A program made the translations under genes and the position numbers. Positions 19,994-51,805 of a DNA stretch of 64,000 nucleotides are shown here, piece by piece. The notes under the pieces are model-generated. The model had not been told where the DNA came from. It saw nothing but the letters and a program-made list of their open reading frames with translations, and ran no database searches. The DNA comes from Strigamia acuminata (Eukaryota; Arthropoda; Chilopoda; Geophilomorpha; Linotaeniidae). The stretch covers positions 4,232,259-4,296,258 of the forward strand of contig OX442320.1 of assembly GCA_949358305.1 (NCBI GenBank). The letters run 5' to 3'. The stretch's first letter is position 1, and each line of letters begins with the position of its first letter.

Positions 19994-22498
<2,505 letters not shown>

Positions 22499-31697: not shown

Positions 31698-32553
31698 GTA
31701 AGTTAATCTTCGGTTTATTAGTTTGAACAATCGCGATCAGCTTTTATTACTGATCACAGCTAATGGGCTAACGCACTCTGGTTAAAACGCTTAAAAAACG
31801 GACAAACACCTTTTATTCAAAAAATGGTGCTTGATTTCTTCATCTTTTTAAAAGCTTTTATTTAACTTGCCATGAATGTTTATGTGTGTGTGTGTTTCAA
31901 CTTCCAGTTTTTGTAATTTTGAAAAAATTGAATTAAAAAATGAATTATAAGATTGGAAAGTAGACTTTTCTGGTGCAGTTTTTGGTCTGCTTTCCAATTA
32001 ATATGATAAAATTGATACTAAAAGTAGTTAAAAGGAAGAAAATGCTGGTAATCAAACATGACGGACCCCGTACACTGAAGGTCGAAATGTGCGCCCGATC
32101 CTCTTTTCGATTGTTTCGGTAGCAAAAATGGTTCGTTAAATTCTGAAACTAGGCTAAACCTAGTTAAAATTAAAATTCCTATCTGTCCATATATTTTATT
32201 CTTTTATTATTAAGTTCTGTTTTGAAACGTGTTTTGACAATCACGAAACAATCTGCGGTAGTAGCGTACTCTGGCGGCGATTTTAAGCACCAATGTAAAA
32301 GCCCTTTTCATTCAACGTGTGCACGTCGTCTGCTTGCGCCTGGATGTTTGTGCGTTTGTTTTTTTTGCCCACAGATGGCAATAGTAGTTGGCGTGAGAGC
32401 ATTTAATTTGTTTCAATTGCTCTAAGCTGATTTACCTCTTTTTAGCGCTTTAGCTCACTAATTTTCCGATAACTAAAAAAGATTTGCGATGGCACGCTCA
32501 CCGCGGTTGTAGTGGTAACATTCTATATATTTTCCTTTATGTTTAGATCGAAA

Positions 32554-35500
32554 ATGTCTCGTGTGTTGGATGAAGTGGAACTTGGGTTAGAAAATTGCCG
32601 AAATTGTAAAAAGTGAAAAAAAAAATTTTTTGTTTTTTTTATTTTATAGAAAGTTTAAACGCTTGATTGGAACTCAAAGTGAAGAAATGTCCGAAGGAAT
32701 GACGAAAATTGACGAGTCGGACTTAGAAGAACAGAACAAACAAGATCTGGTACGTGTATTTGTTTGATTTGTTGTACAGTACTCATTACGGTAAATTATT
32801 GTATTTTTTATTTTCTTTGTTTTGTTTATTACAATTTCTTCGATAGAATTAAGTCGGATTTATTTATTTATTTCTCGATAAAGTCGATGTTTTAGAGCAG
32901 AAATGTTGGATGTTTTAATTATTTTCCACAACCGAAGCAGTTTTGTTTTGAGCAATTTTGAGTCATAATTCGAACATTTAGCTAGCTAGCTTATTTTGGT
33001 TAGAAACAATCAAAAATAGCGAATTTATCGTTAAAAAATCGCACAAAAAATTTAATTATTTTGGATTATTTTCAACGGAAAATTACGGAATTATGCCAAA
33101 TTTGAGCTATTTTTACGAGTAATTTCATCAAATACGATCAAATTTAGTCACAATCTGTCAAATTGACCCACACATTCCGTGAATAACTGCAATTGTGAAC
33201 AGAGTTTACTAATCGTGTGTTTTTCATGCTAACAATGTTGTAGGACCAGAATGTACGGGTAATCGGTATTATTTCTTTAAAAATTGTTTTTTTTAAATAT
33301 TTTATCGATTGTTATTGAAAAATAAAAACTGTTTCACGAACCTACAGGTGAAATCCGACAAAGTATAAAGAGATGAGGCTAAAGAGATTAAATTCGATGC
33401 TTTAGTGAACTGAAAACCTAATGTTATTTCTTTTTATTTATAGCCGCATCAAACCTTGCCGATTATTCCGAACCAGGGCACAATTCCTCCAGAGTAAGTA
33501 AACGTATACGTATACGTATAGTCTATGCAGTGTATATACATGGGTGATGAACATCAGGCCCTGCCATATGGCCGGACTTACGTACAAGCAAAACAAGCAG
33601 TTGCTTAGGGCCGCCGGAAAAAAATCCGCATTTCTGAAAAACATCTGCAAAAAAATCTGCATTTCCCATGAAAAGATGCAGCAGGAGTAGTTTTTTTTTA
33701 TCGATAATGATGATTAATTAGTGTTGTTATTGCTTTTACAGCGGTGAGATTGTTGGTCGGGCAGTGGTTGATGTTAAATGCTGCGCTAAGCCTGGATTAA
33801 ATTGGAAGACCGATGAAAACAAGTGGTCAGCTAACGGAGAAATTCGTGTAAGCAGTTATTGTGTATTTTCCAATTCCATACCCGTGCACTATACTCGAAC
33901 TCACTATAAGTTGGGCCTCACTCCCATTGGCCGAGCCTCATTACTCCTAACTACTACCACCAGGGAAAGTAGTTTTTTTTTTTTTTTTTTTTTTCCTGAT
34001 TATTCTAATGATTCAAATGATTACATTTTATTTGTATTTTATCATAAAATGTTTTTTTTTAATTCATAAAATAATGTTTTAAGTTGTTTGCATTTCATAA
34101 TACATTTTTGTTTAGTTTAGTTAAACAATTTCCTAACAATAGGTAATCGATTGCAATTTCAGGACATCTAATGCAATTCTGGTGTTTTGGTCTATGTGAT
34201 GATTACAAATCCGTATTTATCAATGTTCACAATAGATGGCGCTGTTTACCAAACGCGCGTAATTCAAACTCGATAAAACTAAAAAGTGTAATAAATAATT
34301 ATTTAGACACGGTGAATAAAATATAACTATTTTATTCGACATATACTAAGTATTAATTACTTGATGATGTTGATTCTGTTGAATCAATATCCACGCTACT
34401 TACCTGTCGAAGGGAACCAACTGGACCCTTCCGGACCCCAACTGGGCCCATCTGGACATAGTCATATATTAGGTCCGGACTAGTGACCCACGAATCCGCC
34501 GATTCGTATGCCGATTGGCTGTCGCCAATCTAGTAGTTCTACAGAACTATATAAGCATCAGTTTTTCACCCTCTCATCCCCCTGGCTTGATAACTGTAAA
34601 TGTCTGTAATTGAATTGTTGTTATCGTTTGATTTCACTTTCTTATCGACACATCAGGCCACCTCAGCTCTCCACAATCGGTATTCATTACTATTGTTATT
34701 GTTGTTGTAGGGCCTTTTCGGGAAGGCTAACTCCGGTAATAGACATGCATTCGCATGAAATGGCCCCGTAACGTTAGCCAGCTGTTCTACGGGACAGTAG
34801 GATTTCGTACGGTGGCTTAATATAACGGTCGTATACAGTACGACCTTGCTAAATGAAAGTAGGTCCCTCAGCTAACTGGCCTCAGTCCGCTGCAGGATGG
34901 TTGTTGTAAACAGCCCACGCAGGTTCCCGTCTTTCTACGATTGGTCCTTCCGCTCGTTAAAAGTCGGTAAAGGCCTAATGCACAGGTAACACGCCGGGTT
35001 GGTAGCCCGTGAGTAATATCTTCAGATGTTGCGATAAAATAACTACCTGGATAATGGTAATCCAACGGCAGTGGCCAAGTAATATTTACCCGGTGCTCGA
35101 TCAGTGGATCCCGCCATCGTAAGGCATGCTGGCGGATGGAGGAGTCAAATCCTCCCGCGATGGTTCTCTCGACCGTCGTGACGGTCCCCGCCCCATTGTA
35201 CCCTTCGGGTTAGTAACCCGTGAACGATATATAAAATATGTCGTGCTAAACAAATTACTCGGGCATTGGTAATCCTGTATTGGCAATATCTTTTAAACCC
35301 GGTAAGTCCATAGAAATGTTTACCTGGTGGTTGGTACCACCGATAGCGAGTTAAAACACACAATTAAATACTCGGCGCCTGATCACGAGATCTTGTCGTC
35401 GTAAGGCATGCTGGCGGATGGAGTCTCAACAACTCCCGCGACGTTCTCTCAATTGTCGTGACGGTCCCCGCCCAATTAATATTTATACAACAATTCATTT

Positions 35501-37320
35501 GTTGTATTCCCGAATTATCTATCTCAAAAGGACTAATAAATTAGCCCAAAAGTAGAATCGTCACATCTATTTTTTGGTATCACTACACAAGTGAAATGGC
35601 TCGGCGAATGGGAGTGAGGCCCAACTTATAGTGAGTTAGAGCAGGGTTTCCCGCGCCTCACTGGTGGGGCGCGAGCTGATTATTGGTGGGGCGCACCCAT
35701 CATACATGCCAAAAAATTGCGCGGAAAAATAGCAATATTTTCTATTTTTCCCCGCGATTTTTTCCCGCAGCCAATCACAGATCATTTGCAGCAAACCCTG
35801 GATGCAACGTATCCGCAGCGTATACGCAAGTGTGAACCAAGCTTAAATAAAACAAGCTTATTTTGCAAACTTTTGTAAATTTTTAAGCAAAATTATATAA
35901 AATTATATAAAAAATTATACAAAGTTTTATGCAAAATTACTGTATATAAAAGTTTCTTTTTTTCTTTTTAGTAGTATATTTTTTAAAAATTTAATGCGCT
36001 GGTAGATGAAGTGGGGCGCAGAAGATCGCCTTGCATAAAAAGTGGGGCACGATGCTAAAAAGTTTGGGAACCCCTGAGTTAGAGTATAGTTTCAGAATAA
36101 TGCGCAATAAGCGGAACCCGGAATGCCTATTGTGCATTTTTAAATTTTATTATTTTCAATTGGCTTTTATTGATTTTTATTGATTTTTTAATGATTTGCA
36201 TCAATAGAGAGGGATTTTTAATCTATTTTTAACTGATTTAGGTCGATAGCAAGGAGCATTACATTTGGCTCAAAAAAGTTATTGCTCATTTGGATTCATT
36301 TCCTAGTAAACAGCAAAGGAAGGAGAAGGGCAATTTTATTATTCAAGTAAACAGATTTTTTTTCACCTTTAAATTTATTACTGGTGGTTAGATGATTTTA
36401 ATTTATTTAGATCAAAAACAAGAAAAGAGCCATTTTGCTTTCGGAAGTCTGCCGCTGCCTTAAAACACAACCGAGGTTTCTATTTTTCTATTTTTATGAT
36501 CGCTAATTATTTCTGCATCAATTTGGGAGAGCAATCTTCTAGTTGCTTGTTTTTTTTCTTTGCACTTCCAAAAGTTCTGCTTTTTTGTTTTTAACTGGAA
36601 GTTAATTTTATTGTAAGTTTCAATTATTTCTCTTTAGTTCGTCACATACCACCGGTCCATTTGGGATGGACCAACCCACCGGTCCATCTAGAATGGAACA
36701 ACAAGCTGGCCCATCAGGAATGGAACAAGGCTTAAAAAGGAAAGCCGACAGTGGCTCATCAACTGATGTATGTTTCACGACATCACTGCCAAATCAAAAC
36801 CCTCAAAGTTTTTATTGCCAACTCGTTACCGCCATAATAAAACAGCAAATCCCAAAACCGCTAAACCATTACCATCAATTTTTTATAGCAAAGCCAATAC
36901 CACAAATGCAGGGAGCGTCATTGGAACGTACAGCAAATAACCCAAAATAACCGAAGGTAGCCAAAAATAACCCCCAAAGGATTTCACCGGAGTTGTCGCA
37001 TCTGTGTATTCCCGTAATCTGTGCTCTTGCATTTGCGGTATTGGCTTTGCTATAAATAATTGGCGGAATGGTTTGGCGTTTGGAGATTAATTGGTGGTAA
37101 TGGTTTGGCGGTTTTGAAATAAATTGGCTATATGATTTTGGCGGTAACTGATTGGCAACCGTGACGTCGTGCTACGGCTGCATTACCAAACGATCAGAGC
37201 TAGTAGAATTAATTTTTTTTTCACAATTAGACTTCCAGCAGTGATGCCCGATCAAAAAGAGGAATCAGAAAGAAGATTAAGAAGCCGTGCAAACAGCTCA
37301 ATACAAAACCTGCCAAATGA
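32554..37320 (+). CDS. p53-family paralog A lacking most of the DNA-binding domain
   Basis: Coding exons: 32554-32585, 32650-32749, 33244-33258, (optional 33348-33362), 33444-33493, 33742-33847, 36242-36346, 36411-36475, 36638-36767, 37231-37320; 693 nt, 230 aa, one frame. The proline/linker exon (IIPNQGTIPP) matches paralogs B and C (VPNQGIVPT, VPNQGVVPS). The next exon then jumps to GEIVGRAVVDVKCCAKPG, the last part of the DNA-binding domain. The exons for the rest of the DBD, including the zinc ligands, are absent. Because the flanking exons are both phase 2 the frame is kept. A tetramerisation-like region (VDSKEHYIWLKKVIAHL and IKNKKRAILLSEVCRCL), a triplicated GPSxMEQ stretch and a basic tail follow. 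No MDM2-box is visible. A transposon occupies the intron at 33848-36241. It could be a dominant-negative partner or a decaying copy. Confidence 0.72.
34404..35585. repeat. GC-richer block with promoter-like part and two diverged direct repeats
   Basis: Inside the TIR element. A TATA-like sequence (CTATATAAGCATCAG, about 34544) follows 140 bp of GC-rich DNA. Downstream, two diverged copies of a 220-290-bp unit lie at about 34981-35200 and 35201-35490, each ending with CGTAAGGCATGCTGGCGGAT and TCGTGACGGTCCCCGCCC. TG...CA-like ends suggest a solo LTR, but I found no target-site duplication, so the identity stays open. Confidence 0.45.
35642..36076. mobile_element. hAT-type MITE (435 bp) nested in the right TIR, 8-bp TSD
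   Basis: The left end is CAGGGTTTCCCGCGCC and the right end is the complement of CAGGGGTTCCCAAAC. Exact 8-bp direct repeats AGTTAGAG flank it (35634-35641 and 36077-36084). Terminal CAGGG and an 8-bp duplication identify a hAT non-autonomous element. No ORF. Removing it restores the outer element's terminal inverted repeat, so it is younger than that element. Confidence 0.93.
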
Positions 37321-37339
37321 TTACTTACTTATTTAACCC

Positions 37340-37713
37340 GGGGGTACGACATTCAACCGAATCTCTTAACATGGGCTTTTAAATTCCGCTTCGAATCCCA
37401 AAATCTCCACATACTGATTCGGTATTGTCCCCTTTCGCTGAATCCGGTTTTCTATTTTCTGAAAATAGATAGAAGTGAGTAATCGATCAATTTTTCAATT
37501 TTTGGTTAGGTTAGGTTAGGTCAGGTCAGGTTAGGTTAGGTTAGGTCAGGTTAGGTTAGGTCAGGTTAGGTTAGGTTAGGTTAGGTTAGGTGCCACAAAT
37601 GAAGACGTTTCGACGGCATCGTAAACGCCATTTCAAAAATAATCATCTAAATCTTTCCGAATCCTATGAAAGATTTGAATCTCTGACACACATATTCTCA
37701 TTGTCGTACCCCC
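37340..37713. mobile_element. Small TIR element carrying a TTAGG-type array
   Basis: The left end GGGGGTACGACA (37340-37351) is the exact complement of the right end TGTCGTACCCCC (37702-37713). No clear target-site duplication. Inside, at 37504-37590, are tandem GGTTA units with GGTCA variants. It begins 20 bp after the stop of p53 paralog A. Class unknown. Confidence 0.6.
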
Positions 37714-38088
37714 TGATTTAGGAGTTTTTTTTAAGCCTATATTGATATTGACCTCAAGTATTATTTGTTATTTCTTACATTCCGAGATATGTTAGCTCTG
37801 TGATTCCCAATCAAGTAAAAAATAAATTGGTATCCAAAAAAAATTAATTATTTAGCCCATGTCACAGCTTTGTAAACATTCCTATTTGTTATTGCGGGAT
37901 ATTGGGTGCAATAAACATGTACGTTGTGTAAAAGAGTTAAAGATGGCGCCATTTTGTCCAGTGTATTTGGCAGCAAGGCAGGTTTTGATCTGGACCATCA
38001 ACTCTATAGTCATTTAAAGTCGTTTAAAACGTACAAATAATATTTCGGTGATACTCAGTCTGTTGTGTAGAATAAAGAGTAAATAATA
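37714..38088. other. Intergenic DNA between p53 A and B, no gene seen
   Basis: AT-rich sequence with no ORF or RNA gene recognised. Confidence 0.4.
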
Positions 38089-38657
38089 GGTGCGTTCAAT
38101 CTGGTTAGAAGAAGTGACTTTCACTTTACTTCCTTTCCTCAAAGTCACTTTTCATTGAATGCACTTACTTACCACCAGACTTCCATTTCCATTTACCGTG
38201 AATTTGCCGAATTTACAATGAATTTGCTGAATTTACCGTGAATTTACCGTGAATTTATCGTGAATTTACCGTGCATTGCCACACGTGAATTTACCGTGTG
38301 CCACACGTGAATCTACCGTGTGCCACACGTATATTTACCGTGTGCCACACGTATATTTACCGTGTGCCACACGTAAATTTAGTGTGTGCCACACGTAAAT
38401 TTACCGTGCCACACGTGTGAATTTACCGTGTTCATCGAGAACAAAATGGCTGCCACTGTATTTGTTAAATGTGCAATGCGCATGCGCACGCACATAAGTC
38501 ACTTTTAAAAGGTGGAAAAGGAACTTTCCAGTTACTTTTCTGAAAGTCACTTAGGTGACTTTACTTGGTGAAAATGTGACGTAATTATCGTCACTTTCGC
38601 CCTCTGAAAGTCAGTTAAGTCAGTTAAGTGACTTTCGACTAGCAGATTGAACGCACC
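38089..38657. mobile_element. MITE (569 bp) with perfect TIRs and TA target site
   Basis: The left end GGTGCGTTCAATCTG (38089-38103) is the perfect complement of the right end CAGATTGAACGCACC (38643-38657), and TA flanks both sides. Both ends continue into related blocks containing AGTGACTTT / AAAGTCACTT. The centre (38195-38435) is a tandem array of gtgaatttaccgtgtgccac variants. No coding capacity. Confidence 0.85.
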
Positions 38658-38965
38658 TAATGTTAAACACTGTACTGCCTCAAATTAACTCCGGCTTCCC
38701 AAAAGGGGCTTGGGCCCATTTAAGCACCGGAGGGTCAGCGGCGGTTTAATCAATAAGCGCCGGCCCTGATTAAAAAAGAAAAAAAAAAACATTAAAAAAA
38801 AAAAATTTTATTCATTGTTTAAGACGATCTTTTTTGGTTATGTGCAGGGCCCGAATAAGCGTTAGACTTCAAATAGGCGCCGGGGTTGGGTCGGAAGAAA
38901 ATAAATACCGTAAACACAAATACCTATTTTTCCTGTATAAGCTAATTTATGTATTTATTGAAAAA

Positions 38966-39100
38966 ATGAGTTCCGTTTTCCGTTTTATATTTTTATAAAT
39001 GAGTTCCGTTTTCCGTTTTATATTTTTATAAATGAATTCCGTTTTCCGTTTTATATTTTTATAAATGAATTCCGTTTTCCGTTTTATATTTTTATAAATG
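38966..39100. repeat. 33-bp tandem repeat, four copies
   Basis: Copies begin with atga(g/a)ttccgttttccg at 38966, 38999, 39032 and 39065. Confidence 0.9.
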
Positions 39101-39559
39101 CTTCTAAGTTATGAATTAGAATAAAATCTTATTGATTAAATTTTGTTTTGTCTTGAATTTGTACCAATAATTTGAAATTGATGAATCAGTAGCCATCTTT
39201 GATTTTTTTCAGGACGCATTAGTTCATTTTTTTTTTCTATTTTCATTTGCATATAACTGATGCAATAACAAAATTTTCTTTTGCTGCGAACTCGTAAGAA
39301 AGCCATATCCCGCCATAGTTAGCCGGCGCATGTGTCTATCTGGAGCTGCACACAACATCGAACCGTCCGCGACAGTAAATAGTCCCTCGCAATTCGTAAA
39401 ATTATTTTAAAAATTATTTTAAGGAAATTTGTTTTTTTCACCGAGCAAAAGAAAATGACAAATAATATTAAAAACTTGCAGCAATGTTTACAAATAAAAA
39501 ATAAAAACAATCTGACTTGGCACTGATGTCATCTGGCGCGGATGAATCCCACCTGTTGT

Positions 39560-40749
39560 GTTTATTACACACAGTAGCTAAACATCTCGTCGTTGCTCGT
39601 CAGTGACGATAGATTTCGATCGGTTTGCAGTAACACGGTAAGTTAATCTCTCGTTTACATTTATCAATAATCAATTAATCCCATGCAGCGTGAACTACTA
39701 ACAGTTAATAACGCTAAACGCACTCAGATCGTCCTGAACCCAAACTTAACAATTCCCCGATAACTTTACTTCAAAGTGGTCAAAACACACGCCAGATACG
39801 TTATTTTAACGTTTTCAACCTTAAAATCTGTATCTCCACGCTTAAAAGTTGCAATTTCTCGGATAAAACACCGATGCACCCTCGTCCTGCATGTCAAAAG
39901 CGAGATTTAGTGACGTCACAAATTAAGGATCTTGATCCGGAGTAAACGTTTCACTTGCGTTGGATCAATAAATGGCTGACTAACCTGTTGCTCTTTAAAA
40001 CCTGAAAATTCTTTGTTTATTTTTTACACAAAGATTCTTTTATGCGTGTTTTTAAATTTTAATTTTGCAGAAATATAATTAACTCTTAATTTTTAAATAT
40101 TTCAGATTTTTTCCTCAACAATAGTTGTAAAAACCGCGAAATTGAATAATTTTATTCCCGTTAACAAACATCTTTTTCATTGTGGATTTAAAGGTAAGCA
40201 GTTTTAAATGAAAGTATCAAAGCAGACTTCCTAGTGAAACGACTCACTGGATTAATGTCAAGGTTAAACCGAGTAAGGTTAGGGTTAGTGACACGACCAA
40301 CAAACAGTAGTAGGTAATATGAGTCACCCATAAACAAAATGCGATCATATGCTCACGAACCAATCACCGTCGAGGGTGTGTTAAGGTATGCATCTAGCTC
40401 ACTACCACCGAGCTTTCCCATTGGTTATTTATGATGTCAGTGATGACGTCGTGTATGGAGTGCTTAAATAGTGGGAGAATGGCGGGAAACGACGGGAAAA
40501 GCCATCGATTCGCTCTCGTAGGAGGTTGGCCGAAACACCGCTCGTTTTCCACGCCGAATGCATTTAATCTCGATAATCTTACCACCATTGAAGAGAGATT
40601 TAATTTGATGAGCATTTAACAAGTTGAGTTCATTGAATCATAAGATTTTTGTTGATTTATAAAGAAATGATTATTTGTACAACAATGGCGCTCGGGAATA
40701 ATTTGTATTTGTTTATTTGTTTATTTTTTTTAATAATTTAGATCACAAA
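39560..40749 (+). promoter_or_regulatory. Upstream promoter region of p53 paralog B
   Basis: Contains the candidate non-coding exon donor at 39638 (ACACG|GTAAGT), a perfect CRE palindrome TGACGTCA followed by GGATCTTGAT (about 39911-39937), and a proximal block with TTAAATAG (40464-40471) in place of a TATA box. From TTAAATAG to about 40618 the block is recognisably similar to the region before paralog C (47322-47470), including catttaatctcg.taatctta, whereas sequence between is not. The similarity points to a duplicated proximal promoter and 5' UTR. The acceptor for the coding exon is TTTAG at 40737-40741. Confidence 0.55.
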
Positions 40750-42058
40750 ATGGATAGAATCAAAACTGAATTTGATAATTATTGGGAAAATGTGGGCACG
40801 GAGTAAGAAAAAAATCGAAAATTATTTATTTTTTAATTAATTAAAGCGTAAATAATAAATTAATAATCATTATTTTTTGTTTATTAGTAATTACACTGGA
40901 TTGGTTGCGCGAACTTCGAGTCCGATGGATGAAAATGCCCAGATCTGTCTCCCAGATCTGTTGGACGATTGCAATGTCGATACTAATAGTCAAACGATGA
41001 GAATCGATGATATCGTAAGTATAGTTTGGTATTTGTTGCGTATCGTTCTCGTTAGATGGCGCACGCCGCTATGTCATAATCGATGATTTTTCACGGGGCG
41101 AGTCCGGGCAGGTTCGGGCAAGTTGAGACGAGCAAAAGTTTATAGAAATGTAGATTAGAGAGTGAATTGTGTTTATTTTCATATATTTGCTATTTTTTAG
41201 AAGGTTTTTAAGGAAAGAAATGATTGGGAACATGCATCGGGTTGTTTTAGATGGGTTAAATGGCGGCCGTGATGCAACCGCGATGTTTTGAAATTCGCGA
41301 TGCGTTTTCATTGGTTGGTCGAGTCGATGTGGCGGATTAAAGGTTGTGATTGGTTGTGGGTTGTTAAGGTGTGTGAGTCATCGTTTGGCGGTGGTTAAAA
41401 GGGGATGCGAGCAGACGTCAATTTGTAGTTTGTGAGCAGTCAACTTGAGATGCTTGTGAATTAAATTTTTGTATAGTATTTACGTGTTTTTCACGCAATC
41501 GCAATTTACAACGATCAGGAGGTGTGTCAGGCTAAATACGGTAAAAAATTAAAAATTTTAATTTGATTTTTTTAAATTTTTTTTTTAATTTTTATATTTT
41601 TATATTTTTTATAATAGATTTTTCTCTTTTTTTTTAGTATAATTACTTGAATAATGAAGAGGTGCCAGTTGAGGTAATAAATTAATTTGATTTATTCGTG
41701 ATTTTAAAGAAGAAAATTGATAATTATTGTCATTTCCTGTAATTAAGTACGGAAAAGTGTCAACAGATGGCGCTAATAAGTGCAATTTGATAGTTTTTAT
41801 TTATTAATTTGTTTATTTTATTTCCAGCTGAATCAGATGGAACCATTCGTGCCAAATCAGGGGATTGTCCCAACAGAGTAAATAAATGTATAATTTTTGG
41901 TTATTTAAATTTAAATTAAATATATTTATCATTTTTAGTAATAATTATCTGGGCGATTTTAACTTTTACGTCGATTTCGAGCCGGACGGTGCGAAAATCA
42001 CGAAAAGCTTAACGTGGACGGTAAATATTGATGAAACGTCTAAACATCGCATCCAAAT

Positions 42059-42107
<49 letters not shown>

Positions 42108-44407
42108 GTATTCGGAGAAACTTGGCCGACTTTACGTCGGAAAAGACAAAAAGTGGCCGGTTCGAATGCATTGCGAAGATCCGCCAGAAAATAGCTACGT
42201 TCGTGCGACTTTGGTTTACAAGCAGGCCGATCACATGGCAACATTGGTGACACGATGTCCCAACCACTTGTCGGACGGTAAATATAATAAAATAATAATA
42301 ATAATAACAATATGGCAGTAATGTGGCAAAATAAATAAATAAATAATTTTTTAAATAGATGGTGGTTTGGCCGAAGCTCGAGAACACGTTCTGCGAAACA
42401 TGGACGCACGTGCGATATACCAAGAAGCCGGGGACTCCAAACGCCACAGCGTGGCGTTGTTGCACGTGCCACCTCAAGCTGGGAATTTATATTCCACGTA
42501 CTTCTACTCGTTCGCGTGTCTCACGTCTTGCGTCGGGGGGATGAGTCGGCGACCAGTAAGAGTGATATTCACGTTGGAGATGAAGTAAGTTGATAAAATC
42601 GATTTTAGTTTTTGTGATTTATTTTGATGGTTTTTATCGTTTTTACAGCGGTGGGATCGTTGGTCGAGCGGTGGTGGACGTGAGATGCTGCGCTTCGCCC
42701 GGTCGGGATCGGTTGTCCGACGAAAAGAAGATGGAGATGATGGTCGATCCAGTGAGGAAAAGACCTCGCCTGATGAGGCAGAATAGCAGCGGTGGGTTAA
42801 CGTGCGGTTGTGGTTTTTTTGTTTTGTTTATTTAGTTGTTTATTTTAGACTCTGGGTCGTCCGTGCGGACGGTGGATACGGTGCGAACGGTGGACTCGGT
42901 GCACCGAAGCGAGGTACAGGTGTACAACATTAAGGTAAATGGATTTTTATTTTTTATTGTACGAGATTAAAGTATTTTTGAGTTGTTTAGGTCGATCACG
43001 AGGAGGATTACAAGATACTGCGCAAGATTGCGCGCGGGTTGAAAATGGTTCGGATGGCGCAGTCGAGGTTTGTATTTTTCTAGTCGCTTAATTTGAAGCT
43101 TAATTTTAAGATGGGTATTCGCACTGGCAGTAAGAAATAACTAACTTAAGAATAACACTGGGGTATGAGCGTGCTAAGTGCCACAGTACAATGTGGGTGA
43201 AAAATAAGGCGATAGGAAAGTAATTCAACGAAGTAGCCGCTTGGAAACTGCATTAAAGGAGGTTTTTTTATTGAAAACAAATTTGAGGAATAAAATTAAT
43301 GTGCGATTATTTTTTGGTGTAATATCGCAGTTATATTAGTTTATATTAGTAGTTAAATAGTTTTAAAGGACCTGGGCGCGACTTTCAACGAAGAGGTCAA
43401 ACTTTACAATGATAATCAAGCGGCGGTACAGATGTTAGAAGACGGAATTCAACGGGTGCGGAGCAAGTATTTGAACCGCAAATACCACTTCCTAGTTCAG
43501 GCATTTTTGTTTACACAAAAAATTAATTTTAAAAAAAAATTGTGATTGGTCAAATCGCTTTCTTATTGTTGCTGCCGGTGTAGAACTAGCGTTGGTTTTG
43601 GTAGTTTGGGCGAACGGTCTTCTTATTGCTCGGGTTTTTTCTTTGCGTATTGTATTTCCGCAGTTTAGTCGCATTTGAATTGTAATCTTCGGGCTTGTTA
43701 GTAAAATTTAACAACGGTATTTTTGTTTATAAATAATAATATAGTTATTGTTTTGTCGTTTTAATTTTCAGTTCAATGGCTGGATAGTGAACCAATGGAG
43801 TTTTTCTTAAAGAGGAAAAAAAAGACCAGCGATGAATTTTAATTTAATGGTCGAAAAAGGCCATCAATTGATGCATGATGCAATTGAGAATTGTTTTAAG
43901 TTGGCGGAAGGAGTTGAAGTTGTGGAATTGTTCGCAAAGTGTTTCATAAATAGCATTTTGTATTTTTTTTCAATAATATTATCATTGATTATTATATTAT
44001 TCTGAAATATGAATTCGTTATAGTCTTATTTTAGTGGTTGAATACATCTAATAAAACGTTAGTTGATTTTTTGTATACTTCCTGCCTTATTTTTCTCCCA
44101 CAATGCACCGTGAAGGAATGGACTTAATACATGGTTATGCGTCAAATGTGCGATTTAAGTTTGAATAATTTTTGTTTAGATTGTCACAACCAGGGCCATC
44201 TGGCGTGGAAGAAAGCATAAAAATGGAAGCTGACAGTAGCCAGAGCCAATCAACTGACGTATACTGAAGCATGAAAATATAATTGATGTATGTTAGAATT
44301 GATAATTATTTTTAACAATAAAGAGCTCCAGTGGTGAGTCCCAGCAACAGCAGCCACGAGGAAGGATGAGGATAACGAGAATCAAAATGGGCGCCAGACC
44401 GGAGTAG
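40750..44407 (+). CDS. p53: p53/p63/p73-family transcription factor, paralog B (403 aa)
   Basis: Sequence-specific nuclear transcription factor. Exons: 40750-40802, 40888-41014, 41638-41673, 41828-41877, 41939-42020, 42109-42277, 42359-42584, 42649-42791, 42849-42934, 42991-43067, 44180-44258, 44324-44407 (1212 nt in frame; the last acceptor is weak). The N-terminus MDRIKTEFDNYWENV holds a weakened MDM2-box, followed by an acidic stretch CLPDLLDD. In the DBD the zinc ligands are present (TRCPNHL; CLTSC), as are VGGMSRRP (human R248 and R249 equivalents), DVRCCASPGRDR (R273 and R280 equivalents) and the R175 equivalent. The tetramerisation segment is VQVYNIKVDHEEDYKILRKI. The tail has QPGPSGVE and a basic end ITRIKMGARPE. 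An alternative terminal exon at 43772 would stop after SSMAG. All DNA-contact positions I can align are conserved, so it is probably functional. Confidence 0.92.
41096..41125. promoter_or_regulatory. p53-response-element-like triple decamer, intron 2 of paralog B
   Basis: Three abutting decamers: GGGCGAGTCC (41096-41105), GGGCAGGTTC (41106-41115), GGGCAAGTTG (41116-41125). Each matches the p53 half-site RRRCWWGYYY at 9 of 10 positions. The arrangement recurs at the same place in paralog C. It is located about 270 bp before the candidate internal promoter. Confidence 0.65.
41374..41540 (+). promoter_or_regulatory. Candidate internal (delta-N) promoter and first exon of paralog B
   Basis: TGAGTCA (41374-41380), TTAAAAGGGG (41395-41404) and a first exon ending ...GGCTAAATACG before GTAAAA (41541) match, in order and spacing, a block in intron 2 of paralog C (48763-48953), while surrounding intron sequence is unrelated. 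In B the last triplet is ACG where C has ATG, so a delta-N protein would need a near-cognate start or a downstream ATG. Confidence 0.5.
43369..43490 (+). pseudogene. Ty1/Copia RNase H fragment in p53 B intron
   Basis: One frame reads DLGATFNEEVKLYNDNQAAV followed by QMLED and RSKYLNRKYHF. This matches the Copia-type RNase H core (DNQ.A, then R.K.I..KYHF). No start, no flanking pol domains; a short relic lying in the intron between exons 43067 and 44180. Confidence 0.75.
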
Positions 44408-44727
44408 ACACAAAAGCGGTTGATAATGAAGATACTTAAATTTTCATTTTTGGATTTTTTTTATTTTATAATAATATAATTTGTGATATTCATTTTTATT
44501 ACTCGAATTGTTTTAGTGTTTTGTATGCGCGGTTTTAATTTTTAATTAAATTTTTAGTTTTCAATTCTTTTTATCGCTTTTTCATTAAAAAATTACAATT
44601 TTTTGGATTTTCCAAATTCTGCCGTAATCGTACAAATCGTCCAATCTCGTACGCTTAACGGACATTACGTTGCAATGCATACGTACCTTTACGTTACGTT
44701 CTAAGCGAAATATAAACGAATTTTGCA

Positions 44728-45920
44728 ATGCATTTCATCATTACGTCTTCATCCAGCCATCACGACACAATGAATTTCGCATTAGATTTACCGCTTTTGG
44801 AAGACATTTCGACCGTCGTCACCGCCTTCAGCTTGTGGGTCGAAAACTCGCTCCTCGAAAACTCGTACGCAGATTTTCGGACGTATTACGAATTCCGTAT
44901 CATGTACGACGTGTTCACCGACGATTGTTCAGACCGCCACAACGAGCTGTGGGCGGCAAAATCGGCCGAAATTTGCTCGAATCTCGCAACGAGCGTCGAA
45001 TATCCGGGAGGCTTAAAGCCGGTTTTAACCAAACACGTCCACCTGGTCGGCCGCCAATTAAATCTCTGGTTGTGGCACGTCATCAGAGGCCACCTCGTCC
45101 AATTCACGTACGCCAAATTCGTTGGGTGTCTCCGAGCGACGAAATGAACGACGCACGGCAAAGTGGACGCCATCAAGTCGGCCACGGCGATGCTCGACGT
45201 CCGAGAGCTCACCTGCGACGACCGGACAAATTTAATCGACTGCTTTTGCCTAAAAAATATGGTCATGGACGAGTTTTCTCGTCACACTGACGAGCAGAAG
45301 AAGAAATTCGGTATGTCGTGGTGGGGTTTCTTCTGGTACCGCGAGATCGGCGATCCCAACGATGTTAAGAAATCGTTAGTATTCTATAAGGCAATCCTCG
45401 ACGTGAAATCCCACATCGTGAAATACGTGTGGTCGATTATGGACGATTCGATGCGATTAATATTATGACGTTTTTGTTCGCAAAAATGGGGGAGAGAGAG
45501 TTTGCCGACAGTTGGTTCGCGCGGAGAGTCCCGGGTGAATTGGTGGCCCGATTCGTGGAGGATCCGGTGTATTTTCGTTTTGTATTTCCGTTGGCGCAAC
45601 GGATGCTGGGAGTTTTATTCGTTCGGCAGTTCGGTGATGTGTTTTGGGTGCTGGCGCGACACTGTTGCGCATCCGTTTGCGCACACGCGGCACAAGTCGG
45701 CGAGATTTTCGCAAATTTGTGGAATTGGGCGTCGAAGGAGGCGAAAGGATTGTTTGTGAATGATCCGAACGAGGAATGGGTTTTTTTCCTGTGTCGGATG
45801 CTTTGTGGGAGCGTGTGTCCGGCGCTTGTCAAGTTGGTGTTGGAAGAGATGAACGAGGGGGTCAGGGAGAGGGTTTTGGAGAGGATACAGCAGTTGGGCT
45901 TGAATTTTGACTTTTTGTAA
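44728..45920 (+). pseudogene. Intronless orphan gene with a stop and a frameshift
   Basis: Protein-like sequence runs from the ATG at 44728 (MHFIITSSSSHH...) through an in-frame TGA at 45145-45147, continues in the same frame to about 45465, and then shifts frame near 45440-45470 to continue to a TAA at 45918-45920. The GC content is higher than the surroundings and the hydrophobic/aromatic composition is even (SWWGFFWYREI, DSWFARRVPGELV, LFVNDPNEEWVFFL), about 395 residues in all. I do not recognise the family; the rhythm of W/F and charged residues suggests a helical-repeat protein. Intronless structure between two intron-rich genes suggests a retrocopy or mobile gene. Two lesions make it a likely pseudogene. 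Confidence 0.6.
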
Positions 45921-47571
45921 TTGTATTCTGGATTGCCATCTATCGACATTTTTGTGCACTAAGTGCACTAAATACTACCGTTGTCTATTTTCGTCACATG
46001 TAAATAAAACGAAATAAAATAATTTCAATTTTTCACCAATGGTTTTAAAGGTAATGAGTGATATTGATTTATTTTTTACAAATCGGTTTATATTATTTAT
46101 CCTCCATGTTGACCGGCACACGTGGTGCGCAGTGCTGCCGCTAAACACAACGGGAACAATCCGCGCCATTATAAAGTTCCTGTTTCAAATTCGATTTATT
46201 ACTTGTAGAATTTATTCAACGTTTTATCTCAGTTCGATTATCTTAAAACTGTTTCAAATACAAATTAAAAATATTTTAAAAATAATTATTATGCTTTGAA
46301 TAAAGAAAACGTACAATTTTTAAAGGTGATGTCATTTTTTTCCCCTTTTTTGACCGCGGATGAATACACCCGTCTGTCATTCTGCACGTCTTATGTTGTC
46401 GTAGTTGCTACGCTCACCTGTGGATTAGCAGAGATATTTTTTATCAAATCGTGGTGTTGTAATACGGTAAGTGGATTTATTTATCCTTATCCATCCCCTT
46501 GTTAATCATATCAGCGAACAACGATTGCGAATGGCTATGGGACAAAAAGTCCCGTAATAAGTTTAAAACCGCTTAAAACTTTATTATTTAACGACAACTT
46601 CGCAGAAAAGACGTTTCAAGAACAAATTCCAGCCATTTTGTCGCGAAAATCTGCAAATTTAAGCTTGAAATGAGCAATTTTAAAATTTAGAAAGAAAGTT
46701 TGTAGTGTTTATTAATTCCATCACATAATGTCTCACCCACTATATAAAGTTGAGAATTAATGACGTCATTCTAATTGGATCTTGATTTTAGATTAAGATG
46801 GCGGGGAAATAAGTTTGATCTTAAAACTGAAATTTCTTAAAGTTATTCGTGTTGATCTGTGATGAAAGTGTAAAACTAGACCGAATGGACTTCCTGCGAG
46901 GTTGGAAACGGGATTAATGTCAAGGTCAACTGAAAGTTTTCTGACCTCCGTGTTACGGTATGCTGCGATTGAAAGCTCCCGCCAACGCCTAGTGACGAAA
47001 TTGACAATTAATTTCTTTCTTTCGGTTTTATTTTATTGCATTTTATTTCTCAGGTGTAACTCGAGGAGGTGCACGAGGGTCCGTTTGTAAAGGGGGTGCT
47101 ATTTAAAAGCCTGTATGGGGTGATAACAGGTGGTGAGTCACGAAACTGGTCAAAGTACGCTGCACCTAACGGTAAAATGTAGCAGCTTGTCAGCCATTTT
47201 GGTGGAGATTTTGGCGAACCAATCGGAATCGAGGGTTTGCCGGCTACGTAATCGAATTCACGTCATGAACTCGCGCTATTGGTTAGTTGTGATGTCAAGT
47301 AACACGTGATGTCGTGATGTCTTAAATAGGCGAGTTATGGCGGGAAAACTCCGAGAAAGAGATCATTTCGCTGCCGGAGCACACCCGTCGCCGTTTAATC
47401 AGCTTTATGCATTTAATCTCGTTAATCTTAATCGCCGTTGAAGGAGAATTTAATCCGACGAGCATTTATCGCGTGTTTTACAAGTTGGGAAACAATTTTT
47501 TATAAAATTTGAAATTTGAACGGAAAAAATTGAAGGAAAAAAATATTTCTTTTTGTCTTTTAGATCAAAAA
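45921..47571 (+). promoter_or_regulatory. Intergenic DNA and upstream promoter region of p53 paralog C
   Basis: Contains a candidate non-coding exon donor at 46467 (AATACG|GTAAGT), a CRE palindrome TGACGTCA with a following GGATCTTGAT (about 46762-46785) as before paralog B, and the proximal TTAAATAG (47322-47329) with a downstream block similar to that of B (to about 47470). The coding exon acceptor is TTTTAG at 47558-47563. A block at 46905-46935 (cgggattaatgtcaaggtcaa) also has a counterpart at 40250-40270. No ORF of interest. Confidence 0.5.
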
Positions 47572-50500
47572 ATGGATAGAGTTAATGACCAATTTTCTGA
47601 CATTTGGAATCGCTTAGAGTAAGGCTCGATAAAAATCGATTTAAAATTGAATAAAAAAGTGAAAATAATTTTATAAAATAATTTGCTTTCAACAGCGCTT
47701 TTACGAGCCTCCGCGACCCAAACGGGATCATCGTCGAGGATAATGAAAGGCTCGATTTCGGTGCGGAAACCACGACGGAAGTTTCATTGGAGGAATATCG
47801 ATTGGATTTCGACAGCCAGAAGTTGGAATTGGGTTTCGATGGCCTCGTAAGTGAATTTATTGTTATTTTTCTCAAGTTGAATGTTTGAAAGTTTTGACGT
47901 GAGATGGCGCGCAATGCCGCGCCATCTGATGACCTTGTTGGGCGAGTCTAGGCAAGTCCTGGCAAGTTGAGACACAGAAAATAGGAAATAAATTTAAAAT
48001 ATAATTTTTTTTTTTAAATTTAATTATTTAAATTTAATTATTAAATAAATCACTTATTTATTTATTTTCAAAAATGTGAATTTTTGTTGATTTTAATGCA
48101 AAATAGCCAATTTTTGTTGATTTTCGTGCACAAAATAGCCAATTTTTGTTGATTTTCGTGCACAAAATAGCCAATTTTTGTTGATTTTCGTGCAAAAATG
48201 TGAAATTTTATTATTTTATTGCAAAAATGTGAATTTTTGTTGATTTTAATGCAAAAATATGAATTTTTGTTGATTTTAATGCGAAAAATGTGAATTTTTG
48301 TTGATTTTAATGCAAAAATCTGAATTTTTGTTGATTTTAATGCAAAAATCTGAATTTTTGTTGATTTTAATGCATAAATTTGAATGTTTGTTGATTTTAA
48401 TGCAAAAATGTGAAATTTTGTTGATTTTATTGCAAAAATGTGAATTTTTGTTGATTTTAATGCAAAAATGAGAATTTTTGTTGATTTTAATGCAAAATAG
48501 CCAAATTTTGTTGATTTTCATGCACAAAAAGTGAATATTTTTATTTCTAATGACGTCATCACAAATCCGGATATGGAAATGTCATAAATTGTGGTTAAAA
48601 ATAATGGTTTGCAAGTATCAACTTGTTTAAATGGGTCGAATAGTGCTCGCGATGTATCAGTGATATGTTTTGAAATTTGCGTCCACTCTGATTGGTCGGT
48701 GGGTCGAATTAGGTGGGTGAGAGCTTCCCATTGGCTGCATCTGTTGTACTTACATAATCGCGTGAGTCACCAAATGTTATTGGTTAAAAGGGAATGCAGC
48801 AGACGTGAACTTGTCGCTGGCGATCTCCAACAGTTGTGGTAACATTTCTGCTTCGATTTTACCCAAACTTGACTGTGTTTTGTGACGAGAATGACTTGTT
48901 TGTCGCGCACACGCAAAATTGCACGGATACGGAGGTGTATTAGACCCAATATGGTAAATCTACAGGTACTGGAAGCCATTACAAATTGGTTTTTTGGAAA
49001 ATTATTTATTTTTTAGTTTTTATTTCATTTTTTTGAGGTAAAATTTGGAATTTATCGTTTTTTGTTTTTATTTTTTAGTTGAATTATATGAGCAATACAC
49101 AGTCGCAGCCCCAAACGGAGGTAATGACTTGGATTTTTGTTTAATTCGATAAAACGTAAACAGATGGCGCTATAAATATTTATTTAATCGATTTATGTAT
49201 GCAGGTACAGGCGAACCAACCATCTGTGCCATTTGGACCGGTCGTACCCAACCAGGGCGTCGTACCCTCAAAGTAAAAAATAAATAAATCAATAAATACT
49301 GTATTTCCGTAATTAATTTAATTTTTCTTAGCGTTGATTATCCTGGACCGTACAATTTCACGGTAGAATTCGAAGCCCAGCCTGGAAAAGTATCAAAGTC
49401 TTTAACGTGGACCGTGAGTCATCAAATATCTTTTTAAAAAATAAAATTATATATTTTTTTCTTCTAATTTTAGTATTCGGATGCGTGTAAAAAGTTATTC
49501 GTTGGGAAGGGCAAAAAATGGCCGATTAAGGTGGTGTGTCAACAAACCCCACCGGAAGACACGTACGTGAGAGCGACGCTTGTGTACACTCAAGCGGATC
49601 ATATTTCGAAATTGGTCGCTAGATGTCCCCATCATTTGGTCGAAGTTGAAGGTAAAATATTGACTAGTTAATTTAATTTTTTTGATTAATTAAATTTGTT
49701 ATTTAGTAGACGGGAATTTTCCGGTCGAGCATGTACTTCGCAACATGGACGACGGGGCTGTTTACCAAGCCGCTGAAGATTCGAAGCGCCTGAGCGTTGC
49801 CGTGCCGTACGCGGCCCCACAAGGTAAAATACGATATTTTAAAGTTTAAACAGGAAATGATGTCATTTTTGTTTTAAAATTGAAGTAAAAATATGTTTTT
49901 TATATATTTTTTTTTTATTTTTTAGCAGGAAATTCGTTTTCAACTCTGTTTTATTCGTTTGGGTGTCTTACTTCGTGCACGGGGGGCATGAACAGACGTC
50001 CCGTTAAGATCGTATTTACTTTGGAGGAGAAGTAATATTTTTTTTTTATAAATTAGAATAGTTAAAATTAATTGTTTTGTGTTTTTTTTTTTTTATAGGG
50101 GCGGAATACTCGGCAGGGCCGTTGTTGATGTTAAGTGCTCGGCTTCGCCCGGTCGGGATCGGTTGGCCGAAGAAACTAAGTTGGCGAAAATTGAGACGAC
50201 TAAGAGACCGAGGATGAACAGGCAGAATAGCAACGGTGGGTTTTGATTAGAGTTTGGTTTTATTGGTTTTTTAAATGTGTTTTTTGGGTTTAGATTCTGG
50301 GTCGTCTGTGCGGTCTGTGACTATGGAGACGTTTATTCCACCTTTTAAGAGACCTAAGGTGGAGGGACAAGTGTTTAACATTCAGGTTTGCTTTTTTTTG
50401 GGTTTTTTTTAATCGATTTTTTTTTTAATTGATTTTTTTTGTTTTTCTTTTAATTTTAGGTTGACAATGAGGAAGATTTCAAGGTTTTGAGTAAAGTTGC

Positions 50501-51805
50501 GAGTGGATTGAAACTGTTAAGAACTCAAATGAGGTTTGTATCTTTCTAGTTGCTAATTTTTGCATGAATTTTGTCAAAATTTGATGGATTATGTTTGAAT
50601 TTCGTCAAAATTTTATTGATTTTGCACGAATTTTGTCGAAATTTGATGGATTTTGCATGAATTTTGTCAAAATTTGATTGATTTTGCACTAATTTTGTCA
50701 AAATTTGATGGATTTTGCATGAATTTTGTCAAAATTTGATTGATTTTGCACGAATTTTGTCAAAATTTGATGGATTATGTTTGAATTTTGTAAAAATTTG
50801 ATGGATTTTGTTTGAATTTCATCAAAATCTGATTGATTTTGTTTGAATTTCATCAAAAATTGATTGATTTTGCACGAATTTAGTCAAAATTTGATGGATT
50901 TTGCATGAATTTCTTCAAAATTCGATGGATTTTGTTTGAATTTCCTCAAAATTTGATGGATTTTTGCCTGAATGCGATCAATTTTGCATGAATTTCCTTA
51001 AAAAATTGAATTTTTGACAAATTATTTTTAAATCACTGTAATTTTTAGAAATATTGACAAAAATATCTTGAAAAATTCAGTTTTTTGATCTTTAATTCTT
51101 TGAACGGTCTTTCCTCTGCACTGGGTCTAATTTGGGCGAATGATCTTCTCGTTGCTTGCATTTTTCACAAGGCCAATTTAAATTTGCACTTTTTCAAAAT
51201 TAAAAACTAATAAACAAATGAATAAATCTGGATTTTTTTTTAAATGAAATTTTCAGTTGAATTGCTGGACAATGAAACGACGAAATCATCTCGTCCCGAA
51301 ACAAAAAGACCCGTCGAATTTCTTAAATAAAAATCAAAAAAATTAACACTTAAATTTCACACATATTTACTAATTTATAAACATAATGTTACTCCGCTAA
51401 TAAAAAAGTATTTATTTTTAAAAAAAAAAAAAATATTTTTAATTTTTATAAAAAAAAAGCAACAACGAAATTCCGAGCGTCTCTTCGCAATCTCAATCCC
51501 AGGAACCTCAAAGGTAATTAACAAAAAATCAATTTCATAAATAAATTATTTATTTATTCATTTATTTATTTATTTAGATTATCACAACCGGGACCATCGG
51601 GCGTCGAAAGAACCGTCAGAATGGAAGCCGACAGCAGCCAAGCCACCGACGTACGACTCAAAAATCACTAAAATAAACCAAAAATAACCAAAATAATCTT
51701 TATTAGAGTTCCGGAAACGATTCGCAACCACGCCACCGCTTACCCTGCACCATGCAGAAGATAAAACTCGTCACGAGGATAAAACGCGACCCCGAAGACG
51801 ATTAA
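47572..51805 (+). CDS. p53: p53/p63/p73-family transcription factor, paralog C (about 421-439 aa)
   Basis: Exons: 47572-47618, 47696-47846, 49079-49120, 49205-49272, 49332-49413, 49474-49651, 49707-49823, 49926-50031, 50099-50235, 50294-50385, 50460-50533, (optional 51460-51513), 51578-51650, 51707-51805; in frame with or without the optional exon. The start MDRVNDQFSDIWNRLE carries FSDIWNRL, the FxxxWxxL MDM2/TAF-binding box (human FSDLWKLL). In the DBD the zinc ligands are present (ARCPHHL; CLTSC), GGMNRRP is intact, and DVKCSASPGRDR has K at the human R273 position. The tetramerisation part is GQVFNIQVDNEEDFKVLSKV, and the basic tail is KIKLVTRIKRDPEDD. Compared with B, the exon for the second half of the DBD is split by an extra intron (49824-49925). 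An alternative 3' exon at 51257 gives an immediate stop. This copy best preserves canonical p53 architecture. Confidence 0.93.
47940..47969. promoter_or_regulatory. p53-response-element-like triple decamer, intron 2 of paralog C
   Basis: GGGCGAGTCT (47940-47949), AGGCAAGTCC (47950-47959, a perfect RRRCWWGYYY) and TGGCAAGTTG (47960-47969) abut with no spacer, followed by AGAC as in paralog B. About 790 bp before the internal promoter block. Confidence 0.7.
48055..48535. repeat. 30-bp minisatellite in p53 C intron 2
   Basis: About 15 copies of aatgcaaaaatgtgaatttt plus tgttgatttt; open frames are artefacts. Confidence 0.92.
48763..48953 (+). promoter_or_regulatory. Candidate internal (delta-N) promoter and ATG exon of paralog C
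   Basis: TGAGTCA (48763-48769) and TTAAAAGGG (48784-48792), then about 160 nt ending ACGGAGGTGTATTAGACCCA and ATATG before the donor GTAAAT (48954). The ATG at 48951-48953 would splice in phase 0 onto exon 3 (49079, reading LNYMSNTQ), producing a p53 without the FxxxWxxL box. The same block exists in paralog B. Confidence 0.6.
50545..51000. repeat. 31-bp minisatellite in p53 C intron
   Basis: About 14 copies of gattttgcatgaattttgtc plus aaaatttgatg, with variants; fills the intron after exon 50533. Confidence 0.92.

What the first reader, a model, noticed from the sequence alone, without database searches (positions are those of the whole stretch)
32554..51805. Three tandem p53-family genes on one strand
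The sequence shows three successive genes with shared exon phases, shared linker (VPNQG), shared tail exons (GPSG.E) and shared 5' splice context. Most invertebrates are described with one or two p53/p63/p73 genes. A head-to-tail cluster with divergent DBD and N-terminal motifs would be a natural experiment in p53 subfunctionalisation.
Basis: partly seen in the sequence, partly recalled or inferred. Interest (0 to 1): 0.9.

Follow-up and report, generated by a model that had tools for sequence, protein, structure and literature searches.

The report
Centipede p53 trio, one lacking DNA-binding core
A centipede carries three p53-type genes in a row: two look like complete p53 transcription factors, while the third has lost the core of its DNA-binding domain but can still be read open from start to stop.

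Summary
The cluster is real. The window lies on chromosome 7 of the centipede Strigamia acuminata (scaffold lengths match the published assembly). Three p53-derived genes lie head to tail on the + strand, from the ATG at 32554 to the stop at 51805, sharing ATG context, linker, most exon phases and tail exons. Genes B (40750-44407) and C (47572-51805) are complete p53 genes (Pfam DBD 168 and 176 bits), saturated at synonymous sites and restrained at replacement sites: old duplicates under selection, not an assembly artefact. C groups with a Strigamia maritima protein (95/91), so the duplication probably predates that split, although a B+C pair is not rejected. Gene A (32554-37320) has no divergent DBD: the core DBD exons are gone, replaced by a 248-bp intron with a dispersed repeat; the rest is open for 234 codons and has two tetramerisation-like exons. 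And B and C each keep a triple p53 half-site array in intron 2, the only contiguous ones of that strength in 64 kb, which suggests auto- or cross-regulation. An MDM2 gene exists elsewhere in the genome. Favoured reading: two working p53 factors plus a DBD-less paralogue that may modulate them. Transcription of A is untested.

The parts
32554..37320 (+). Gene A: DBD-less p53 paralogue, 8 exons 32554-32612, 32650-32749, 33444-33493, 33742-33847, 36242-36346, 36411-36475, 36638-36767, 37231-37320; 234 aa
   Evidence: All 7 introns GT-AG, frame open throughout; 0 of 20000 mononucleotide-shuffled CDS open. PF00870 13.3 bits, under the cut-off of 27 (a partial 154-aa model that includes A's only DBD exon).
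32542..32556 (+). Shared ATG context, gene A (also 40737-40752 in B and 47559-47574 in C)
   Evidence: 3 matches, 0.01 expected
33444..33493 (+). Gene A linker exon (PNQG)
   Evidence: 50 nt, entry phase 0 and exit phase 2, as in B
33494..33741 (+). Intron of A at the place where the core DBD exons are missing
   Evidence: 248 bp against 771 bp of exons and introns in B; no hit of B, C, P0001 or P0002 inside it by tblastn
33570..33683 (+). Dispersed repeat in that intron
   Evidence: Of 51 rows in a genome search of 33430-33860, 49 fall on this stretch give or take four bases; the other two are the self match and gene B (first look capped, a lower bound)
33742..33847 (+). Gene A: the only remaining DBD exon (GEIVGRAVVDVKCCAKPGLNWKTDENK)
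   Evidence: 75% DNA identity to B over 101 bp that include 19 intron bases; strand block of 15 codons pN 0.06, pS 0.49; PGRDR of B and C reads PGLNW
34195..35517 (+). Long repeat inside intron 4 of A (LTR-like by its paired copies, read by eye)
   Evidence: 40 near full-length copies listed, 93-98% identical; only 40 of 2783 candidates were scored
36242..36346 (+). Gene A exon with first tetramerisation-like unit (TD1)
   Evidence: Rank 3 of 2377 AG-anchored open 18-mers; 34 of 100000 shuffles reach its score against 9 other TDs; DNA match to the start of B's TD exon, 78% over 46 bp, E 4e-5
36411..36475 (+). Gene A exon with second tetramerisation-like unit (TD2)
   Evidence: Rank 4 of 2377; 1 of 100000 shuffles; donor resembles that of B and C TD exons (read by eye)
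36638..37320 (+). Gene A tail exons (GPSG repeat and basic C-terminus)
   Evidence: Same frame and phases as B and C tails
40750..44407 (+). Gene B: complete p53-family gene, 12 exons, 403 aa
   Evidence: Spliced model open; PF00870 167.6 bits; p53 DBDs in PDB, E 9e-42
41096..41125 (+). Triple p53 half-site array in intron 2 of B
41939..42791 (+). Gene B DBD exons
42991..43067 (+). Gene B tetramerisation exon
   Evidence: Four Strigamia TDs against 9 other p53-family TDs: hhalign 93.3%, E 2.7e-7
44726..45920 (+). Unrelated broken open frames between B and C
   Evidence: No Pfam family at its cut-off for the two pieces scanned; 5 partial matches elsewhere, 4 on C1 and 1 on C8
47572..51805 (+). 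Gene C: complete p53-family gene, 13 exons, 421 aa; N-terminal FSDIWNRL
   Evidence: Spliced model open; PF00870 176.4 bits; S. maritima relative E 1.1e-83
47940..47969 (+). Triple p53 half-site array in intron 2 of C
49332..50235 (+). Gene C DBD exons (one intron more than B)
50460..50533 (+). Gene C tetramerisation exon

Best explanation
An ancestral centipede p53 gene was duplicated in tandem, probably before S. acuminata and S. maritima split. Two copies, B and C, remained complete tetrameric transcription factors, and C kept the better MDM2-binding motif. Both probably respond to p53 themselves, through a p53 response element in intron 2 (auto- and cross-regulation). The third copy, A, lost the core of its DBD, probably through a deletion at a site that now holds a dispersed repeat. 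It kept an open reading frame with the linker, one DBD exon, a doubled tetramerisation-like region and a basic tail. The most likely role of A, if translated, is to modulate the other two through mixed oligomers or shared partners, not to bind DNA. Shown: gene structures, homology, frames, restraint on B and C, the response-element match. Inferred: transcription, oligomer formation, regulation by the element, and any function of A.
For: Gene models with GT-AG junctions and mostly shared phases; Pfam and PDB matches; B-C DBD pS 0.82 against pN 0.23 over 185 codons; clade support; shared ATG context; TD homology; A's two TD-like units rank 3 and 4 of 2377; A open over 234 codons, other frames with 6 and 19 stops; half-site arrays at the same intronic place in B and C, the only contiguous ones of that strength in the window; MDM2 SWIB and RING exons in the genome.
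Against: No transcript data. A's protein search found no relative, with a model that still lacked the exon at 36411, so no second species shows A. A's TD blocks show little restraint: TD1 against B pN 0.48, pS 0.50; TD2 against C pN 0.45, pS 0.87. Without the AG anchor TD2 (23.25) barely leads the next 18-mers (22.0, 21.25). The helix after the DBD strand has lost PGRDR, TD2 has basic residues where B and C have acidic ones, so mixed tetramers may not form. A's first intron is 37 nt with a weak donor. Pfam's tetramerisation model reaches neither B, C nor the S. maritima proteins. The tree does not reject B+C as a pair (p-AU 0.156) nor B with P0002 (0.085). With spacers of 0-13 allowed, the 10 p53-site hits do not exceed the largest of 30 shuffles (10, mean 4.7).
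Confidence: 0.58

Rival explanations
1. B and C are the working p53 genes and A is a recently dead copy: the DBD deletion killed it and its frame has not yet decayed.
For: The DBD core is lost, PGRDR has decayed to PGLNW, a dispersed repeat lies in the deletion intron and another long repeat in intron 4, no relative of A was found, and the TD blocks show little restraint. At 0.01 neutral changes per site 38% of simulated frames would still be open.
Against: The 12 codons after the strand already carry many replacements (pN 0.33; a block chosen after the fact), which implies some time since the deletion, yet none of 234 codons is a stop and no exon is shifted. At 0.05 neutral changes per site 0.8% of simulated frames remain open with my indel rate of 0.1 per change, 16% with substitutions alone.
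Confidence: 0.36
2. A's 5' exons are an alternative promoter and first exons of gene B (phases would allow the linker exon of A to join B's first DBD exon), and A's own 3' exons are remnants.
For: A's linker exon leaves in phase 2 and B's exon at 41939 enters in phase 2.
Against: A has its own in-frame TD-like and tail exons with a stop; B has its own ATG in the same context.
Confidence: 0.05
3. The cluster is an assembly expansion or unpurged haplotypes.
For: Curation removed 23 haplotypic duplications, so such errors existed before it.
Against: B and C are saturated at synonymous sites and differ in an intron; no N in the window.
Confidence: 0.01

Closest known systems
p53/p63/p73 family of arthropods with MDM2 (chelicerates, myriapods; PMC5543598, passages seen)
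   Same: TAD motif, DBD, oligomerisation domain, MDM2 partner; S. maritima is named there among species whose MDM-binding motif is less conserved
   Different: That survey describes a myriapod gene with all four domains including SAM; here three tandem genes, no SAM found in B or C, and one gene without DBD core
Lineage-specific p53 duplicates of mosquitoes, Nasonia, Tribolium, Ciona (PMC5543598, PMC4803236, passages seen)
   Same: Independent invertebrate duplications
   Different: The tree of PMC4803236 is built on the DBD and describes ecdysozoan proteins that often consist of the DBD alone; gene A is the reverse and would not be seen by such a search
Elephant TP53 retrogenes (PMC5061548, passages seen)
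   Same: Extra copies said to lack residues needed for DNA binding; one co-precipitates with p53
   Different: Retrocopies that also lack residues for tetramerisation; A keeps introns, tail and TD-like exons and loses the DBD core
Delta-N p63/p73 isoforms (recalled)
   Same: Family members that modulate others through mixed tetramers
   Different: They keep the DBD and lack the TAD; A lacks the DBD core

Membership tests
p53 family (gene B) | p53 DNA-binding domain | tested here: met
   PF00870 167.6 bits, cut-off 27; PDB p53 E 9e-42
p53 family (gene B) | Zinc ligands and main DNA-contact residues (human numbering recalled) | tested here: met
   By eye on the alignment: K120, C176, H179, C238, C242, R248, R273, R280 kept; N247 is S, C277 is S
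p53 family (gene B) | Tetramerisation domain | tested here: met
   hhalign 93.3%, E 2.7e-7 for four Strigamia TDs against nine others; but Pfam's own model gave no match
p53 family (gene C) | p53 DNA-binding domain | tested here: met
   PF00870 176.4 bits; by eye the position of R273 is K, C277 is S
p53 family (gene C) | MDM2-binding motif FxxxWxxL | tested here: met
   FSDIWNRL read from the spliced model; binding not testable here
p53 family (gene B) | MDM2-binding motif FxxxWxxL | tested here: inconclusive
   FDNYWENV, last position V
p53 family (gene A) | p53 DNA-binding domain | tested here: not met
   13.3 bits over 29 positions, cut-off 27; an unrelated family, Cep192_D6, scored 17.1 bits, also under its cut-off (partial model). 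Core exons absent. A is a relative by descent, not a DBD-bearing member
p53 family (gene A) | Tetramerisation domain | tested here: inconclusive
   Two similar units, significant by shuffles, but several conserved positions changed and little restraint on the codons; oligomerisation not testable
p63/p73-like | SAM domain | tested here: not met
   No SAM match in the B and C models at E up to 1; an unrecognised downstream exon is not excluded

The most novel reading that the evidence does not exclude
Gene A encodes a natural p53 without DNA-binding core and with a doubled tetramerisation region, kept beside two full p53 genes as an inhibitor or titrator of them. Such genes would be invisible to any survey that finds p53 by its DBD, so they could be common in ecdysozoans.
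Probability: 0.22. Interest if true: 0.85.

Novelty: new variant of a known kind. Interest (0 to 1): 0.6.

Why it matters
Vertebrate p53, p63 and p73 came from genome duplications and sit on different chromosomes. A tandem trio in a genome that also has MDM2 gives an independent case of how p53 copies divide their work: which copy keeps the MDM2 motif, which element they share, and whether a copy can survive with no DNA-binding core. It also warns that p53 gene counts taken from DBD searches would miss copies like A.

Tried and rejected
Rejected: (a) my first reading that A stops in its fifth exon after a lost donor; the intron 36347-36410 restores the frame and matches the family's donor and phase. 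(b) Further p53 genes in the genome: C9:5422566 and C1:31533852 I judged chance from their open frames; C1:48162676-48163765 is a decayed partial copy of C with introns; C8:8077767 and a second place about 3.6 kb on are partial C-terminal copies. (c) A linker A-B codon block was misaligned by one codon and is not used. (d) The TD scoring used a wrong register for TD1 and a wrong exon start; one search replaces it. (e) The p53 element near the MDM2 exon (L055:9102) is one hit in 95,406 bases and no evidence. (f) Two weak p53-site hits lie in gene A itself (35835 in intron 4, 36703 in the tail exon; spacers 5 and 10); with spacers allowed such hits are at the level of shuffles, and I make nothing of them.

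Literature: search listings 23, 25, 26, 41, 59, 60, 61 and 94 (only the top rows seen where many papers matched, e.g. 20 of 881, 15 of 195; one search matched none); passages of PMC5543598, PMC10303687, PMC8901663, PMC4155161, PMC6981761, PMC4803236, PMC5061548, PMC4244043; abstract, outline and section 5 of PMC10556566. In what I saw there was no tandem p53 cluster in a centipede and no p53 paralogue without DBD; p53 has no occurrence in the main text of PMC4244043. The library holds open-licence papers only.

Rows dropped: the tree used B, C and 13 of the 18 database proteins (P0008, P0010, P0011, P0012, P0013 left out), with mis-predicted stretches of P0001 and P0002 masked. The nine comparison TDs are 9 of the 11 non-Strigamia rows of that set (Patiria and Boreogadus left out).
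Full report
Where it is. The window is G000:C9:4232259-4296258 of a 237,517,015-base genome. C1 of that genome is 66,985,994 bases long, exactly the longest scaffold of the Strigamia acuminata assembly qcStrAcum1.1, and C9 at 12,254,865 bases fits its chromosome 7 (12.25 Mb). The two best protein matches are from Strigamia maritima. The species is therefore a geophilomorph centipede. That assembly is HiFi at 98-fold coverage, QV 59.6.

Genes B and C. Spliced models with GT-AG introns give 403 aa for B (12 exons) and 421 aa for C (13 exons). Pfam's p53 DBD scores 167.6 and 176.4 bits (cut-off 27), and PDB p53 chains match B at E 9e-42. By eye, zinc ligands and most DNA-contact residues are kept. 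C has one intron more than B in the DBD. Their tetramerisation exons are not reached by Pfam's model, but the profile of four Strigamia sequences matches that of nine other p53-family domains (93.3%, E 2.7e-7). No SAM domain was found in either model.

Age and selection. Over 185 DBD codons B and C differ at 82% of synonymous and 23% of replacement sites. The four Strigamia proteins form one clade (100/100) and C pairs with S. maritima P0001 (95/91), which puts the duplication before the species split; but a tree that holds B and C together is not rejected (p-AU 0.156), nor one that holds B with P0002 (0.085). P0002 lacks part of the DBD and P0001 the first DBD exon, which may be gene-model faults. 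Both S. maritima names begin T1INQ (cut off in the output), so the genes may be neighbours there too; I could not check this.

Gene A. The ATG context shared by all three genes occurs three times in 64 kb (0.01 expected). A's linker exon, last DBD exon, tetramerisation-like exons and tail exons follow in the order of B and C. The three exons that hold most of the DBD in B have no counterpart: the place is a 248-bp intron with a repeat that gives 49 of the 51 rows of a genome search. The joined frame is open for 234 codons; the other two frames have 6 and 19 stops, and 0 of 20000 shuffles are open. The remaining DBD strand is conserved against B (15 codons, pN 0.06, pS 0.49), the helix behind it is not (12 codons, pN 0.33, pS 0.63), and PGRDR has become PGLNW. 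That pattern fits loss of DNA binding while the frame was kept, but the blocks are short and chosen after the fact. The TD blocks of A show little restraint (TD1 against B pN 0.48, pS 0.50; TD2 against C pN 0.45, pS 0.87), the tail block more (pN 0.17, pS 0.48 against B).

How long A could stay open by chance. In a simulation of neutral decay from A's frame, 38% of copies are still open at 0.01 changes per site and 0.8% at 0.05, with an indel rate of 0.1 per change that I chose; with substitutions alone the figures are 67% and 16%. A recent death is therefore not excluded.

Two tetramerisation-like exons. Of 2,377 open 18-residue frames that follow AG on either strand of the window, the Strigamia TD profile ranks C and B first (they are in the profile), then A's exons at 36242 (27.0) and 36411 (23.25), with the next at 13.75. 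Without the AG condition (54,101 frames) the two keep ranks 3 and 4, but the next are 22.0 and 21.25. Against nine TDs of other p53-family proteins, 34 and 1 of 100000 shuffles reach their scores, and they resemble each other (10 of 100000). I read this as a duplicated unit. Oligomerisation cannot be judged from sequence: TD2 has basic residues where B and C have acidic ones, and positions equivalent to human F328 in TD1 and F338 in TD2 are changed.

A shared response element. The p53 site is two copies of RRRCWWGYYY (quoted in PMC6981761). A scan for contiguous decamer pairs of at least 18 of 20 with intact C and G cores finds four overlapping pairs in the window, all in two triple arrays, 41096-41125 in intron 2 of B and 47940-47969 in intron 2 of C; local shuffles give 0.17 on average, 1 at most in 30. 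With spacers of 0-13 allowed there are 10 hits against 4.7 on average and 10 at most, no clear excess; none of the 10 lies in A's intron 2. With 2 mismatches and no core rule there are 9 contiguous matches against 1.32 expected, four of them in a tandem repeat at 20345 and one at 2363. The two arrays sit in a 34-bp block 85% identical between B and C. An intronic element of this kind could drive auto-regulation or an internal promoter; that is inference.

MDM2. A SWIB exon at C1:23198592 matches MDM2 best in PDB (E 1e-4). A RING exon about 1.3 kb further on matches MDM2 (E 8.7e-18). A second SWIB exon lies at C1:22333063, in DNA 92% identical over 709 bp. C carries FSDIWNRL, B FDNYWENV, A no such motif by eye. 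PMC10303687 (passages) reports very weak or no binding for an arthropod (tick) pair, so the motif alone proves little.

Verdict. It is a real, old, lineage-specific tandem p53 cluster with two full genes. The third gene is the odd one, and its status, a working DBD-less modulator or a copy on its way out, is the open question.

Noticed in passing
C1:22333063 (-) and C1:23198592 (+) of the same genome (L036, L037): Two MDM2-like SWIB exons about 865 kb apart, in DNA 92% identical over 709 bp; the second is followed by an MDM2-type RING (tested) and what looks like MDM2's zinc finger (by eye). A possible MDM2 duplication beside the p53 duplication.
   Followed up: partly
C1:48162676-48163765 (-): Decayed partial copy of gene C with introns, 79-94% identical to pieces of 48600-49830 of the window.
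   Followed up: partly
L034:7771-7899 and L035:1282-1577 (C8): Two partial p53 C-terminal copies; in the first, the two exons around the tetramerisation strand are fused without an intron.
   Followed up: partly
41054, 41765, 47902, 49162: AGATGGCGC (like the fly CTCF motif, recalled) in introns 2 and 3 of both B and C; 7 forward and 4 reverse copies in the window.
   Followed up: no
36520-36556, 43602-43639, 51129-51165: Intron stretch after the tetramerisation exon alike between A and C and between B and C; purpose unknown.
   Followed up: no
43772 and 51257: A possible alternative exon after the tetramerisation exon; in B it would end the protein with SSMAG, much like S. maritima P0002 (SSMAGE).
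   Followed up: no
44726-45920: Broken open frames of an unknown protein between B and C, with 5 partial matches on C1 and C8.
   Followed up: partly
34195-35517: Repeat of about 1.32 kb inside gene A's intron; 40 near full-length copies listed at 93-98% identity (capped list).
   Followed up: partly
20162-21709 and 61640-63816: Flanking genes: two protein-kinase-like pieces upstream, just under Pfam's cut-off (29.8 and 31.6 against 31.7 bits), and fructose-bisphosphate aldolase downstream, over the cut-off.
   Followed up: partly
256-2234, 20863-21247, 48069-48552, 50558-50973 and others: Many minisatellites with periods of 20-21 and 30-31 bases, some inside the p53 introns.
   Followed up: no
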